A stretch of 10,271 nucleotides of DNA from assembly GCA_022567775.1 (NCBI GenBank), contig JADFGH010000048.1, positions 1 through 10,271 on the forward strand, written 5' to 3'. The notes below the pieces were generated by a model. That model was not told where the DNA came from. It worked only from the letters and a program-made list of their open reading frames with translations, and did no database searches. This stretch comes from Pseudomonadota bacterium (lineage in GTDB: Bacteria; Pseudomonadota; Gammaproteobacteria; Steroidobacterales; Woeseiaceae). This document shows positions 2,648 through 6,482 of the stretch, piece by piece (the stretch's first letter is position 1; each line of letters opens with the position of its first letter). A program made the position numbers and the translations under genes.

Positions 2648-5350
2648 ATGCTGATGAGCGACAGCAAACTCGTCCTTGTGGACGGATCATCCTATCTTTA
2701 CCGCGCGTACCACGCGCTACCCAAACTTACGAGCTCCCGTGGCGAGCCGACCGGCGCGATACATGGCGTGCTCAGCATGCTATTGAAGCTCGCGAAGGAG
2801 CAGGACACCGAGCACTTCGTGGTGGTATTCGACGCTCCCGGAAAAACGTTTCGGGATGAAATTTTCGACGCATACAAGGCGAACCGGCCGCCAATGCCCG
2901 ATGACCTTCGCTTGCAGATAGATCCGCTGCTCGAAGCCGTGCCCGCCATGGGTTTGCCGATGCTGCGAATCGAAGGCGTCGAGGCCGACGATGTCATTGG
3001 CACCCTGTGCCGGCAGGCCGCAGCAGACGGTATGCAGGTCCTGGTATCAACCAGCGACAAAGACATGGCGCAACTCGTCGATGACAACATCACCCTGGTC
3101 AACACCATGAGCGGTACGGTGCTGGACCGCGATGGCGTCAAGAAGAAGTTCGATGTTTTTCCGGAACAGATCATTGACTACCTGGCACTGGTTGGCGACA
3201 GTTCCGACAATATACCCGGCGTACCGCGCGTCGGCGCGAAAACTGCCGCCAAGTGGCTGAATCAGTATGGCAGTGCCGCATCGATCATCGAGAATGCAGA
3301 AGAGATAACAGGCAAGGTTGGCGAGAGCCTTCGTGAAAATCTCGACCAGCTGGAATTATCACAGGACCTGGCCACGATCAGGCAAAACGTCGAATTGCCG
3401 TTGGGGCCGAAAGAGCTCAAGCGTACCGCGGGAGATACCGAAAAACTTAGGGCGCTGTACAGCCGGCTGGAGCTCAGAACTTTACTGGCTCAACTGGGCA
3501 ACGACGGTGCCGACGCGCGGAACCAACCGAAGACCCGGAGCAAGGGCCAGTACGAGACAGTTCTCAAGCAGTCGAGGTTCGATGCCTGGCTGAAAAAAAT
3601 TGATAAGGCTGCGTTGACGGCAATTGACACCGAAACGACCAGCATCGACTACATGCAGGCGGAACTCGTCGGCATTTCACTCTCGGTGAAGACGGGCGAG
3701 GCTGCTTATATTCCGGTGGCGCACGACTACCCGGGCGCACCGGAACAACTCAGTCGCGAATCGGTGTTGTCATCGCTCAAAGCATTTCTCGAAGATCCGC
3801 AAAAGAAGAAGGTCGGCCATCACCTCAAGTACGACGCGCATATCTTTGCGCGTTACGACATCGCGCTACAAGGAATGCAATTTGATTCAATGCTCGAGTC
3901 GTATGTGTTGAACAGTGTGGCCACACGGCACGATATGGATTCGACCGCACGCTATTATCTCGACATCGACACCATTCATTTTGAGGATGTTGCGGGCAAG
4001 GGAGCAAAACAACTTACGTTCAACCAGATCGACCTGGAACTGGCTGCACCTTATGCAGCCGAGGATGCGGACATTACTCTCAAGCTTCACCAACATCTGT
4101 GGGGCGAGCTGCAGAAGACCGCCACGCTAAAGAATGTGTATGTGGAAATCGAACAACCGCTGGTGCCGATTTTGCTCGGGATGGAAGAAGCGGGCGTGCT
4201 TATCGATTGCGATATGCTCAAGAAGCAAAGCGGCGAGCTCGCAGAGAAAATGGCTGGCCTGGAAGCCAGTGCGCACGAGCTGGCCGGCGCTCCGTTCAAC
4301 CTGGGATCCCCGAAGCAGCTTCAGGAAATACTGTTCGTTCAGCTCGGCCTGCCGGTGATCCGGAAGACGCCCAAAGGACAACCATCGACCGCTGAGGATG
4401 TTTTGCAGGAACTGGCGAGCGATTACGATCTGCCGCGCGTCATCCTGGAGTATCGAGGCGTCAGCAAGCTGAAGAGCACGTATACGGACAAATTGCCCGA
4501 ACAAATTGCCGCGGATACCGGACGCGTGCATACCTCTTATCACCAGGCGGTTGCCGCTACCGGACGCCTGTCGTCAACGGATCCGAATTTGCAGAACATT
4601 CCGATCCGGACGCCCGAAGGACGCCGTATTCGCCAGGCATTTGTTGCTCCGGACGGGGCCGTCTTGTTGGCGGCCGATTATTCGCAGATCGAGCTGCGCA
4701 TCATGGCGCATCTCTCAGGTGACGCCGGATTGCTGGACGCTTTTGCCGATGATCAGGACATACACAAGGCAACCGCCGCAGAAGTATTTGCACTGGACCC
4801 CGATGACGTAACCACAGATCAGCGGCGATCGGCAAAAGCCATCAACTTTGGACTCATGTACGGTATGTCGGCATTCGGTCTCGGCAAGCAACTCGGCATC
4901 AGTCGCCACGAAGCACAGGAGTATGTGGATCTGTACTTCGACCGATATCCCGGCGTAAAGAAATTCATGGACGACACACGCGAGCAGGCGCGGCAGGCCG
5001 GATTCGTCGAAACGATGTTCGGACGCCGTCTTTATCTCCCTGATATCAACGACCGCAACGCGCCACGGCGGCAGTACGCCGAACGCAGTGCGATCAACGC
5101 GCCGATGCAGGGTACTGCCGCCGACATCATCAAGCGCGCGATGATTGCCGTGCAGCACTGGCTCGATACCAGCAAGGCGCCTGCCCGCATGATCATGCAG
5201 GTGCATGATGAACTGGTATTCGAAGTCGCGGAAAAATCAGTCGATGAGGTCCAGGCCGAAATCGTTGCCCTGATGAGCGCGGCGGCCGACCTCTCGGTCC
5301 CGCTCAAGGTCGATGCAGGTATCGGCAGCAATTGGGATGAAGCACACTAG
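2648..5350 (+). CDS. polA: DNA polymerase I
   Basis: A 900-residue polymerase for Okazaki-fragment processing and repair synthesis (E. coli: 928). All three domains look active. The 5' nuclease, about 1-290, has VDGSSYLYRAYHA at 11-23, EADD at 112-115, STSDKDMAQL at 134-143 and GDSSDNIPGV at 183-192. The 3'-5' proofreading exonuclease, about 320-495, keeps Asp327 and Glu329 (DTET), Asp396 (LKYDAH), and Tyr469 and Asp473 (YAAEDAD). In the polymerase, motif A has Asp677 (ADYSQIELR), motif B has Lys730, Phe734 and Tyr738, and motif C has His853 and Asp854 (QVHDELVFEV). These catalytic residues sit exactly 28 positions before their E. coli counterparts, so the domains are collinear and most of the length difference falls in the linker near 290-315. 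The start may be 2648 or the ATG at 2654. No Shine-Dalgarno sequence is visible, and a small GC hairpin lies just upstream. Identity is certain. Confidence 0.98.
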   Translation: MLMSDSKLVLVDGSSYLYRAYHALPKLTSSRGEPTGAIHGVLSMLLKLAKEQDTEHFVVVFDAPGKTFRDEIFDAYKANRPPMPDDLRLQIDPLLEAVPAMGLPMLRIEGVEADDVIGTLCRQAAADGMQVLVSTSDKDMAQLVDDNITLVNTMSGTVLDRDGVKKKFDVFPEQIIDYLALVGDSSDNIPGVPRVGAKTAAKWLNQYGSAASIIENAEEITGKVGESLRENLDQLELSQDLATIRQNVELPLGPKELKRTAGDTEKLRALYSRLELRTLLAQLGNDGADARNQPKTRSKGQYETVLKQSRFDAWLKKIDKAALTAIDTETTSIDYMQAELVGISLSVKTGEAAYIPVAHDYPGAPEQLSRESVLSSLKAFLEDPQKKKVGHHLKYDAHIFARYDIALQGMQFDSMLESYVLNSVATRHDMDSTARYYLDIDTIHFEDVAGKGAKQLTFNQIDLELAAPYAAEDADITLKLHQHLWGELQKTATLKNVYVEIEQPLVPILLGMEEAGVLIDCDMLKKQSGELAEKMAGLEASAHELAGAPFNLGSPKQLQEILFVQLGLPVIRKTPKGQPSTAEDVLQELASDYDLPRVILEYRGVSKLKSTYTDKLPEQIAADTGRVHTSYHQAVAATGRLSSTDPNLQNIPIRTPEGRRIRQAFVAPDGAVLLAADYSQIELRIMAHLSGDAGLLDAFADDQDIHKATAAEVFALDPDDVTTDQRRSAKAINFGLMYGMSAFGLGKQLGISRHEAQEYVDLYFDRYPGVKKFMDDTREQARQAGFVETMFGRRLYLPDINDRNAPRRQYAERSAINAPMQGTAADIIKRAMIAVQHWLDTSKAPARMIMQVHDELVFEVAEKSVDEVQAEIVALMSAAADLSVPLKVDAGIGSNWDEAH

Positions 5351-5383
5351 CAGCTGCTGGACAAAGCCGAAGACCGGCAAGAA

Positions 5384-5412
5384 TTGAGCCGAAATACTTC
5401 TTTGTTTTCAAT
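5384..5412 (+). promoter_or_regulatory. Candidate sigma-70 promoter of the small RNA
   Basis: TTGAGC (four of six to TTGACA) at 5384-5389 and TTCAAT (four of six to TATAAT) at 5407-5412 are 17 bases apart. The predicted start is near 5419-5421, a few bases before the first strong stem of the candidate RNA. Both boxes are weak matches; the value lies in spacing and position. Confidence 0.35.
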
Positions 5413-5419
5413 AAGTTCT

Positions 5420-5572
5420 CTGCGTAGTGAACTCCGGACCTGAAAACTGTTCCAAACTTCCGAGTGCGTTAGTCACTTGCCTGCTTACCTCCCTAGGCGG
5501 GCTTGCAACACGGTTACCCCAAACCTGTTGCGTACCTGACCCCGGATGTTCGTTGAACATGCGGGGTTTTTT
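5420..5572 (+). ncRNA. Candidate structured small RNA in the polA-engB gap (spf/ersA position)
   Basis: About 153 bases with no protein frame and dense pairing potential, bracketed by a promoter-like pair and an intrinsic terminator. Stem 1: AGTGA at 5426-5430 plus ACTC(C)GGA at 5431-5438 pair with TCCGAGT at 5459-5465 and TCACT at 5473-5477, leaving a one-sided bulge at 5466-5472. Stem 2: GCCTGC at 5479-5484 pairs with GCGGGC at 5497-5502 (one G-T pair); its 12-base loop contains ACCTCCCT. Stem 3: GCAACA and GGTT at 5505-5515 (C5511 bulged) pair with AACCTGTTGC at 5522-5531; the loop is ACCCCA. The terminator hairpin follows. The same gap after polA holds Spot 42 in enterobacteria and ErsA in Pseudomonas. 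I see no sequence likeness to Spot 42, so any relation is positional. It could instead be the structured 3' end of the polA transcript. Structures were read by eye, not computed. Confidence 0.5.
5540..5572 (+). terminator. Rho-independent terminator (polA and/or candidate small RNA)
   Basis: CCCCG at 5540-5544 pairs with CGGGG at 5562-5566, and ATGTTC at 5546-5551 pairs with GAACAT at 5555-5560 around a three-base loop, with one G/G mismatch between the two helices. Six Ts follow directly at 5567-5572. This is a strong intrinsic terminator for plus-strand transcripts, 190 bases after the polA stop. That distance is long for a simple polA terminator and fits a separate short RNA. Confidence 0.85.
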
Positions 5573-5574
5573 AT

Positions 5575-5587
5575 GGGGTCTGACCCC
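5575..5587. repeat. GGGGTC-T-GACCCC palindrome
   Basis: Six-base perfect inverted arms around a single T, directly after the terminator T-run. The ten bases CTGACCCCGG at 5580-5589 also occur at 5536-5545 at the left foot of the terminator. TTATGGGGTC at 5571-5580 recurs in inverse orientation as GACCCCATAA at 2605-2614, the 3' end of lptM. It may be a mobile or dispersed palindrome; function unknown. Confidence 0.5.
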
Positions 5588-5597
5588 GGTTAATTAA

Positions 5598-5622
5598 GTC
5601 GCTCGCTGGGGCGAGCTCCTAC
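5598..5622 (+). repeat. REP-like palindromic element 1a
   Basis: A 25-base element: hairpin GCTCGC / GCGAGC with loop TGGG (5601-5616), then the fixed flank TCCTAC at 5617-5622. It matches the reverse complement of element 1b (5668-5692) at 22 of 25 positions. Two of the three differences are one swapped base pair of the stem (T-A for C-G). The pair forms a BIME-like inverted unit of the kind mobilised by RAYT transposases; no such transposase is in this window. Confidence 0.75.
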
Positions 5623-5663
5623 GAGGTGTTGCTACAATTCTCAGGCGTCGGAATAAACAAAAT

Positions 5664-6281
5664 TCATGTAGGAGCCCGCCCCAGCGGGCGATCTTTTTCT
5701 GTCCCCAGGAATTTTTCCAGCACCTCGCGAGCTTCTTCCACGCCCTGCTTCCTGAGCGCCGAGAATAGTTGCACGCTGGCAGAATCGCCGAGTTCCTTTT
5801 TTACTTCCAGTAACGCCGTTGCCGCCTTTCCCCGCTTGAGTTTGTCTGCTTTGGTTAACAGGATGTGGATTGGCACGCCGACGGAAGCAGCGAAAGAAAG
5901 CATCTGGCGATCGAATTCGCCAAGCTGACGGCGTACGTCCACAACCAGTATCAGCCCGGAAAGGCTTTCACGTTGTTCGAAATAGGCCCGTAATAATCTG
6001 CCCCAGTGTTGCCGCACCGACTCTGCCACCCTGGCAAAGCCATAACCGGGCAGATCGACCAGGCGCTGCCCATCCCGCAGCTCGAAGAAATTGACAAGCT
6101 GGGTTCGTCCGGGTGTCTTGCTGGTCCTCGCGAACTGGCGCCGGTTGACGATGACGTTAATAGCGCTGGATTTGCCGGCATTGGACTTGCCGGCCACGGC
6201 CACTTCCGTACCGCTGTCAGGCAGGAATTGATCCGCTGCGTTGGCACTCAGAATAAATTTTGCGTCAGGGAACTGCGACAT
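5664..6281 (-). CDS. engB: Ribosome biogenesis GTP-binding protein EngB (YihA/YsxC)
   Basis: A 205-residue essential-type GTPase that helps assemble the large ribosomal subunit (E. coli YihA: 210). Motifs in order: G1 GKSNAGKSS at 31-39, G2 region KTPGRTQ at 56-61, G3 DLPGYG at 76-81, G4 TKAD at 143-146, and G5 SAL at 174-176. I start at the ATG at 6281 (MSQFPDAKFILSA), which matches the usual EngB N-terminus. The frame is open to 6410, but those 43 extra residues look unlike EngB; no clear Shine-Dalgarno sequence marks either start. The last nine residues, DRPLGRAPT, are encoded by a REP-like repeat (5668-5692) and the stop lies just beyond it, so the original C-terminus was probably replaced or extended. 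The gene converges on polA across the small-RNA gap, the arrangement known in E. coli and Pseudomonas. Confidence 0.95.
   Translation of the reverse strand: MSQFPDAKFILSANAADQFLPDSGTEVAVAGKSNAGKSSAINVIVNRRQFARTSKTPGRTQLVNFFELRDGQRLVDLPGYGFARVAESVRQHWGRLLRAYFEQRESLSGLILVVDVRRQLGEFDRQMLSFAASVGVPIHILLTKADKLKRGKAATALLEVKKELGDSASVQLFSALRKQGVEEAREVLEKFLGTEKDRPLGRAPT
5668..5692 (-). repeat. REP-like palindromic element 1b (inside the engB 3' end)
   Basis: Flank GTAGGA (inverse of TCCTAC) at 5668-5673, then hairpin GCCCGC / GCGGGC with loop CCCA (5674-5689). It faces element 1a across 45 bases. It encodes the last nine residues of EngB on the minus strand. Confidence 0.75.
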
Positions 6282-6302
6282 GGGATCGGGCCCCGATGTG
6301 TG

Positions 6303-6308
6303 TATAAT
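6303..6308 (+). promoter_or_regulatory. Possible -10 box for cytochrome c4 in the divergent engB gap
   Basis: An exact TATAAT on the plus strand, 175 bases before the cytochrome gene, in the 201-base gap between divergent engB and cytochrome c4. No -35 hexamer is found at 16-18 bases. A second plus-strand box, TATACT, lies at 6336-6341, also without a -35. The rest of the gap shows no clear feature. Confidence 0.25.
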
Positions 6309-6482
6309 TTGCGGCTTTAAGGACCTACCGGGCCTTATACTGACGGTTCCGGGGTCACTCAGCAACGCCGCTGCCCATTCCGGCCAGGTAATAAAGCGGA
6401 TTAACGCCACGTTTAAGACTCTGTTTTTTGGATTTCAATCATTGCGGTAGCACGAATACCGTCCAAGTAACGGTCAGGCAGT

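What the first reader, a model, noticed from the sequence alone, without database searches (positions are those of the whole stretch)
5420..5572. Candidate small RNA at the spf/ersA position between polA and engB
The 313-base gap holds no protein gene. It contains a spaced promoter-like pair (5384-5412), three stem-loops (5426-5477, 5479-5502, 5505-5531) and a strong intrinsic terminator (5540-5572), in that order. Enterobacteria carry Spot 42 and Pseudomonas carries ErsA in this same gap. I see no primary-sequence match to Spot 42, so this may be a lineage-specific RNA at a shared sRNA site.
Basis: partly seen in the sequence, partly recalled or inferred. Interest (0 to 1): 0.7.

Follow-up and report, generated by a model that had tools for sequence, protein, structure and literature searches.

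The report
Stress-controlled small RNA beside engB
The gap between polA and engB very probably encodes a small regulatory RNA with C-rich loops and an envelope-stress type promoter, and it belongs to a family of such RNAs that keeps its place beside engB in many gammaproteobacteria.

Summary
The sRNA is supported, but its borders and reading change. Conservation puts a sigma-E/AlgU-type promoter at 5428-5455 and the RNA at about 5461-5574: three hairpins (CCUCCC and ACCCCA loops in the second and third) and a terminator. GAAC[TC]-N17-TC precedes it in 38 of 39 close relatives and 62 of 80 wider ones (shuffles 0.5%). Base pairs covary.

It is not lineage-specific. A model of close relatives matched 50 of 143 class genomes; 37 of 55 matches lie 18-344 nt 3' of engB. 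A broader model matched 76 of 143; 75 of these have rpoE, against 32 of the other 67. The one clear Rfam relative is anti-hemB: below its cut-off here (28.9 versus 49.5 bits), above it at four engB-sRNA-hemB loci. Position recalls sX13 and ErsA (sequences not compared); Spot 42 is not supported.

Likely action (inferred): an envelope-stress sRNA whose C-rich loops pair with G-rich ribosome-binding sites. No transcript is known here.

The parts
5408..5418 (+). IHF-like block TCAATAAGTTC upstream of the promoter (tentative; one mismatch to the pattern used)
   Evidence: TCA[AG]N4TT[AG] upstream in 25 of 39 close relatives, 23 of these at 51-55 nt before the RNA; shuffles 3.1%; only 11 of 79 in the wider set. 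That it resembles the IHF consensus is recalled.
5428..5434 (+). -35 element TGAACTC of a sigma-E/AlgU-type promoter
   Evidence: Conserved GGAACT block; GAAC[TC]-N17-TC in 38 of 39 close relatives and 62 of 80 wider relatives
5451..5455 (+). -10 element TCCAA, 16 nt after GAACTC
   Evidence: same form as the own genome's rpoE promoter GAACTT-N16-TCTAT
5461..5574 (+). small RNA, about 112-114 nt (5' end predicted, not measured)
   Evidence: Model match 5461-5572; fold z -5.81
5462..5478 (+). hairpin 1 (GAGUG/CACUU)
   Evidence: 97.9% of cells paired, 2 of 5 pairs with both-sided changes
5479..5502 (+). hairpin 2 with C-rich loop CCUCCC (resembles the anti-Shine-Dalgarno end of 16S rRNA; resemblance recalled)
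   Evidence: 6 of 8 pairs with both-sided changes; CTCCCT in 64 of 80 wider relatives
5505..5531 (+). hairpin 3 with C-rich loop ACCCCA
   Evidence: 2 of 9 pairs with both-sided changes; [TAC]CCCCAA in 50 of 80 wider relatives
5538..5572 (+). intrinsic terminator with U-run
   Evidence: Fold; 97.4% of cells paired but no both-sided change among its 5 counted pairs
2648..5350 (+). polA, DNA polymerase I
   Evidence: NF004397 and TIGR00593 over cut-off
5664..6410 (-). engB/yihA, the conserved neighbour, convergent with the sRNA
   Evidence: TIGR03598 over cut-off

Best explanation
The locus encodes a trans-acting small RNA of about 113 nt with its own sigma-E/AlgU-type promoter. In envelope stress RpoE would raise its level. 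Its stable hairpins hold out C-rich loops (CCUCCC, ACCCCA) that would pair with G-rich ribosome-binding sites and lower the translation of selected mRNAs. It is a form of a wider sRNA family that sits 3' of engB and includes RNAs called by Rfam's anti-hemB model. Shown by computation: conserved promoter, covarying hairpins, terminator, place beside engB, co-occurrence with rpoE. Inferred: transcription in this organism, control by RpoE, loop-to-RBS pairing, targets.
For: GAAC[TC]-N17-TC in 38 of 39 close relatives and in 62 of 80 wider ones, 47 of 65 outside the seed rows, against 0.5% in shuffles and 0-9 of 80 at other spacings from 10 to 25. The same architecture upstream of 25 of 30 rpoE loci, the own genome's included (2.6% in shuffles). 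Covariation on an alignment not fitted to structure: 97.1% of cells paired against 93.1%, 10 pairs with both-sided changes against 3.9, 0 of 500 shuffles. R1: 50 of 143 class genomes, 37 of 55 matches 18-344 nt 3' of engB, 35 of these convergent. rpoE in 75 of 76 R2-positive and 32 of 67 R2-negative genomes. anti-hemB over its cut-off at four engB-sRNA-hemB loci. A transcript beside a ribosome biogenesis GTP-binding protein gene is reported in Alcanivorax from differential RNA-seq (passage of PMC9788540; sequence not compared).
Against: No transcript data for this organism. The promoter string alone is not specific: 27 sites in the genome against 13 for the reversed pattern. 18 of 80 wider relatives lack the exact motif. 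12 of 55 R1 matches lie away from engB and 6 more are in genomes where engB was not called. anti-hemB-type copies L112, L360, L362 and L372 show no such promoter, and the table passage for ncS04 (anti-hemB) of B. cenocepacia shows no significant change in the seven conditions listed. rpoE co-occurrence is confounded by phylogeny and genome size. No conserved target was found.
Confidence: 0.75

Rival explanations
1. It is only the structured 3' UTR and terminator of polA, made by read-through, with no sRNA of its own.
For: It lies on the same strand just downstream of polA; no transcript data exist for this organism.
Against: A promoter-like element with fixed spacing directly precedes the RNA in 38 of 39 close relatives. 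Loops are conserved. The RNA also stands beside engB without polA, for example between engB and hemB in L358, L363, L364 and L365.
Confidence: 0.06
2. It acts mainly by binding a protein rather than by pairing with mRNAs.
For: Highly structured with short loops; no conserved target emerged.
Against: The conserved loops are complementary to Shine-Dalgarno-like sequence, and described C-loop or CU-rich sRNAs are reported or predicted to act by pairing (passages of PMC3771888, PMC5688073, PMC11722255).
Confidence: 0.12
3. It is a lineage-specific RNA whose likeness to anti-hemB is convergent.
For: The anti-hemB score is below the curated cut-off (28.9 versus 49.5 bits); plain DNA search found it in 42 of 61 genomes of its family and 0 of 38 of other families of the order.
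Against: R1 matched 50 of 143 genomes of the class, 37 of 55 matches beside engB; promoter and loops recur.
Confidence: 0.05
4. It is a Spot 42 homologue.
For: Same polA-engB position; in the E. coli spf stretch the best R2 match falls inside spf.
Against: That match is only 10.6 bits (E 0.034 in 2.3 kb) and rests on the 5' stem and the terminator. No Spot 42 match in the gap up to E 5.
Confidence: 0.02

Closest known systems
anti-hemB / Burkholderia RNA 7 (Rfam RF02837; ncS04 of B. cenocepacia)
   Same: Aligns over the whole model, CCUCCCU-loop hairpin, second hairpin and terminator. At L358, L363, L364 and L365 the family stands 3' of engB and convergent with it, with a GAACT-type promoter.
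   Different: 28.9 bits against a cut-off of 49.5; an extra 5' hairpin; polA rather than hemB on the far side. Some anti-hemB copies have no such promoter.
sX13 of Xanthomonas (passages of PMC3771888)
   Same: Downstream of polA, about 115 nt, strongly structured, C-rich loops; described action through G-rich motifs near translation starts.
   Different: Described with three C-rich loops (CCCC, CCCC, CCCCC) and no engB neighbour named; its authors report it only in Xanthomonadaceae. Sequence not compared here.
ErsA of Pseudomonas aeruginosa (passages of PMC7565897 and PMC8575079)
   Same: polA-engB gap; described as strictly dependent on sigma22, the AlgT/U homologue of sigma-E.
   Different: Described as two stem-loops with a U-rich unstructured domain between them; here three hairpins plus terminator and no such domain. 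Sequence not compared.
Spot 42 (spf) of E. coli
   Same: Between polA and yihA/engB, same orientation.
   Different: No significant similarity; regulation by cAMP-CRP is from a passage (PMC3295665) and recall.
S17 of Bordetella and the RF02278 double-hairpin RNAs of Burkholderia (passages)
   Same: Short RNAs with CU-rich unpaired stretches predicted to cover ribosome-binding sites.
   Different: Different Rfam family and, for S17, different neighbours; no RF02278 match in the gap up to E 5.

Membership tests
anti-hemB (RF02837) | score at or above the curated cut-off (49.5 bits) | tested here: not met
   28.9 bits, E 5.7e-5
anti-hemB (RF02837) | hairpin with CCUCCCU loop, second hairpin, terminator | tested here: met
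   End-to-end alignment 1-81 of 81
anti-hemB (RF02837) | beside hemB | tested here: not met
   polA is the far neighbour here; hemB is so in L358, L363, L364, L365
sX13 | just downstream of polA | tested here: met
   RNA start about 110 nt after the polA stop
sX13 | three C-rich loops | tested here: inconclusive
   Two C-rich loops (CCUCCC, ACCCCA); the terminator loop is not C-rich
sX13 | sequence homology | not tested
   No Xanthomonas record was obtained; L361 and L366 resemble its description only
sX13 | Hfq-independent repression of mRNAs with G-rich motifs | not testable with these tools
   Needs experiment
ErsA | polA-engB gap | tested here: met
ErsA | sigma22/sigma-E dependent promoter | tested here: inconclusive
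   Promoter sequence of the right form; dependence needs experiment
ErsA | two stem-loops with a U-rich domain between | tested here: not met
   Three hairpins plus terminator against the description
ErsA | sequence homology | not tested
   No Pseudomonas record was obtained
Spot 42 (RF00021) | covariance-model match | tested here: not met
   No match in the gap at the gathering score or up to E 5; R2 on E. coli spf 10.6 bits
Spot 42 (RF00021) | position between polA and yihA/engB | tested here: met

The most novel reading that the evidence does not exclude
One sigma-E-controlled, C-loop sRNA gene has stayed anchored to the 3' side of engB since before the beta- and gammaproteobacterial lines parted. 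This RNA, anti-hemB, sX13 and ErsA are its present forms, and Spot 42 is a derived form that lost the sigma-E promoter and the C-rich loops.
Probability: 0.3. Interest if true: 0.87.

Novelty: new variant of a known kind. Interest (0 to 1): 0.7.

Why it matters
Several sRNAs studied apart (anti-hemB, sX13, ErsA, Spot 42) map to the polA/engB/hemB neighbourhood, and the sX13 authors asked whether the polA locus of other bacteria also encodes sRNAs that act alike (passage of PMC3771888). A class-wide model, a shared promoter type and a fixed anchor beside engB make that question directly testable. They also point to an old envelope-stress sRNA that Rfam mostly does not call: RF02837 reached E 0.001 in 124 of 274 class genomes but its cut-off in only 13.

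Tried and rejected
Sigma70 promoter at 5384-5412: no such site in the scan; the conserved parts are elsewhere. Spot 42: rejected. Plain DNA search beyond the family: 42 of 99 genomes matched, all among the 61 of family f1 (own genome included), 0 of 38 of other families of the order, so covariance models were used. Targets: the 9-nt complement of loop 2 shortly before an ATG gave 8 matches in 6 of 12 genus genomes, against 4 for the reversed control. One is the rpoH leader of the own genome; the other reading frames were not put to a family search, and rpoH was not among the matches of the other 11 genomes, so no target is claimed. Promoter string as genome-wide evidence: rejected, 27 sites against 13. 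Phylum search with R2: 12 of 299 genomes, all of the same class; the answer does not say how many of the 299 lie outside the class, so nothing is claimed about other classes. Promoter motif in R2-negative engB stretches: 5 of 63 against 2.5 expected; L277, L289 and L308 look like divergent members by eye and are not counted. A count of C-runs in the terminators was dropped because the stem itself holds CCCC.

Rows left out: L015 of 40 family sequences (3' end cut by my T-run rule), giving 39 in A1. Of the 39, 29 come from genomes of family f1 (L002 is the window itself) and 10 from named contigs of unknown family (L035-L043, L046). Of 122 engB-downstream stretches listed, 120 were fetched and 117 searched with R1 (three stubs of 101-189 bases left out). 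R2 was run on 67 of the 68 without an R1 match (L313, 230 bases, left out). Rfam gathering scans covered 40 of the 120 (one match, the cis-regulatory TwoAYGGAY in L305) and 15 loci of mixed origin.

Full report
WHAT IS THERE. The window lies in a gammaproteobacterial genome of 2.38 Mb in 403 contigs, 83% complete. polA (2648-5350, +) and engB/yihA (5664-6410, -) converge on a gap (5351-5663) with no ORF of 80 aa or more wholly inside it. On the + strand the gap holds an IHF-like block (5408-5418), a sigma-E/AlgU-type promoter (5428-5455), three hairpins (5462-5478, 5479-5502, 5505-5531) and an intrinsic terminator (5538-5572). The RNA 5461-5574 folds at -50.4 kcal/mol, z -5.81, 0 of 200 shuffles as good.

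CLOSE RELATIVES. Plain DNA search found the gap in 42 of 99 genomes, the own one included: 42 of 61 of family f1 and 0 of 38 of other families of the order. Forty non-redundant sequences from engB/polA gaps align to the core; 39 were aligned as A1. On A1, which was not fitted to a structure, 97.1% of cells pair against 93.1% in shuffles, and 10 pairs show both-sided changes against 3.9, 0 of 500 shuffles as high; slid structures pair 33-49%. The terminator pairs hardly vary and add no covariation. Upstream, GAAC[TC]-N17-TC stands in 38 of 39, and in 39 of 39 with N16-18, usually 5-6 nt before the first hairpin.

WHY SIGMA-E TYPE. The published consensus (GGAACTT, about 16 nt, TCTAA-like) is recalled, so an internal control was run: rpoE genes found with TIGR02939. 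Upstream of 25 of 30 rpoE loci, the own genome's included, lies the same architecture, mostly GAACTT-N16-TCTA[TC]; shuffles 2.6%. Six of six reduced genomes of genus g5 seen in both searches lack rpoE and the sRNA. Against this: as a string in the whole genome the motif is not specific, 27 sites against 13 for the reversed pattern. Its weight comes from conservation at a fixed spacing.

NOT LINEAGE-SPECIFIC. No Rfam family reaches its gathering score in the window. With E up to 5, anti-hemB (RF02837) aligns end to end at 28.9 bits, E 5.7e-5, cut-off 49.5; two weaker matches had E of about 2. In 274 genomes of the class RF02837 matched 124 at E 0.001, 13 of them over the cut-off; it also rang below the cut-off in 3 of 14 control genomes, so weak matches need the test of location. 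Of the 30 loci fetched with it, 23 carry polA and/or engB in the flanks and 23 have GAAC[TC]-N16-18-TC within 100 nt upstream (no shuffle control in that call).

A MODEL OF CLOSE RELATIVES. R1, built from A1, matched 50 of 143 genomes of the class, each of a different genus, the own one included. engB was found in 123 of the 143. Of 55 R1 matches, 37 in 36 genomes lie 18-344 nt 3' of engB, 35 of them convergent; 12 lie elsewhere, and 6 are in genomes where engB was not called. Of the 30 loci fetched with R1, 27 carry polA and/or engB. In 117 engB-downstream stretches R1 found the RNA in 49 at E 0.001; the broader model R2 found 8 more in 67 of the rest. R2 over whole genomes matched 76 of 143: 58 of its 83 matches, in 55 genomes, lie within 633 nt 3' of engB, median 49, 55 convergent. 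R2 was trained on many of these loci, so its placement is not independent; that of R1 is.

CLASS-WIDE ANATOMY. In 80 distinct RNAs (83 rows), 94.7% of cells pair against 72.8% shuffled and 26 of 27 pairs show both-sided changes (this alignment was fitted to the structure). GAAC[TC]-N17-TC stands upstream in 62 of 80; other spacings from 10 to 25 give 0-9; shuffles 0.5%; outside the 15 seed rows 47 of 65. CTCCCT occurs in 64 of 80 (shuffles 4.5%) and [TAC]CCCCAA in 50 of 80 (1.2%). rpoE is present in 75 of 76 R2-positive and 32 of 67 R2-negative genomes. Among the 107 genomes listed at 2 Mb or more the figures are 71 of 72 and 24 of 35. Phylogeny and genome size remain confounders. The IHF-like block is not class-wide: 25 of 39 close relatives but 11 of 79 in the wider set.

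LINK TO ANTI-HEMB. In L358, L363, L364 and L365 the order is engB - sRNA - hemB. RF02837 scores 52.9, 55.2, 71.4 and 57.9 bits there, over its cut-off, and a GAACT-type promoter precedes each. So the Rfam-called RNA and the window's RNA share structure, promoter type and the place 3' of engB; the gene on the far side is hemB in the one and polA in the other. Against a uniform picture: L360 and L372 (beside hemB, no engB in the flanks) and L112 and L362 (neither) show no such promoter, the fold of L364 alone is weak (z -1.63), and the table passage for ncS04 shows no significant change in the seven conditions listed.

LINKS BY DESCRIPTION. Only passages of these papers were read. PMC3771888: sX13, 175 bp downstream of polA, three C-rich loops, repression through G-rich motifs. 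PMC7565897 and PMC8575079: ErsA, polA-engB gap, strictly sigma22-dependent, two stem-loops with a U-rich domain; the last point speaks against close kinship. PMC9788540: Alcanivorax sRNA4758272 beside a ribosome biogenesis GTP-binding protein gene, from differential RNA-seq, two copies in some species; that this gene is engB is my inference. PMC5688073 and PMC11722255: CU-rich sRNAs of Burkholderia and Bordetella. PMC3295665: Spot 42 and a second sRNA in the same gap in Aliivibrio. PMC3521395: anti-hemB listed in B. pseudomallei. Two polA-adjacent relatives, L361 and L366, have C-rich loops like those described for sX13 (L366 folded). No ErsA or sX13 sequence was compared.

SPOT 42. R2 without filters on the E. 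coli polA-spf-yihA stretch put its best match inside spf, but at 10.6 bits, E 0.034, resting on the 5' stem and the terminator. This supports neither membership nor exclusion of a very old tie.

MECHANISM. Most likely RpoE raises the RNA in envelope stress, and the CCUCCC and ACCCCA loops pair with G-rich ribosome-binding sites. Promoter, structure and place are shown by computation; transcription, control and pairing are inferred. One candidate target is rpoH of the own genome (AGGGAGGTA before its start); it was not among the matches of the other 11 genus genomes.

NOVELTY. In the held library no paper has both sX13 and ErsA, one has Spot 42 and sX13, one has Spot 42, polA and ErsA, three have anti-hemB, and five have engB, polA, sRNA and intergenic together. 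In the listings and passages seen there is no statement of a class-wide sigma-E sRNA family at engB. Most subscription papers are not held, so this is not proof of absence.

Noticed in passing
5599-5622 (-) and 5668-5691 (+): Two head-to-head copies of a REP-like 24-mer; the own genome has 140 copies at up to 2 mismatches against 0 for the reversed pattern. The second copy lies in the 3' end of the engB ORF, so its last codons are repeat sequence.
   Followed up: partly
5536-5545 and 5580-5589: A direct repeat CTGACCCCGG stands in the terminator's 5' arm and again just after the terminator.
   Followed up: no
L356 (G000:C367:4052-4072, -): The rpoH leader of the own genome carries AGGGAGGTA, complementary to loop 2, before the start codon.
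   Followed up: partly
L211, and by eye L124, L210, L227: The gene upstream of the sRNA is a BepA-like M48 protease, itself an envelope gene; only L211 was put to a family search, on a partial ORF below the curated cut-off.
   Followed up: partly
L116, L119 (neither polA nor engB in the flanks); L203/G137, L225 and G118:C49: Family members away from engB, some in tandem copies (G358, G247, G118:C49). L116 and L119 have a GAAACTTTCC...GTCTTA element upstream.
   Followed up: no
Upstream of the sRNA in genus g11 loci, for example L022-L025: A conserved palindrome-like block TTTAGACT...GTCTAAACTA further upstream, absent from the window's genus.
   Followed up: no
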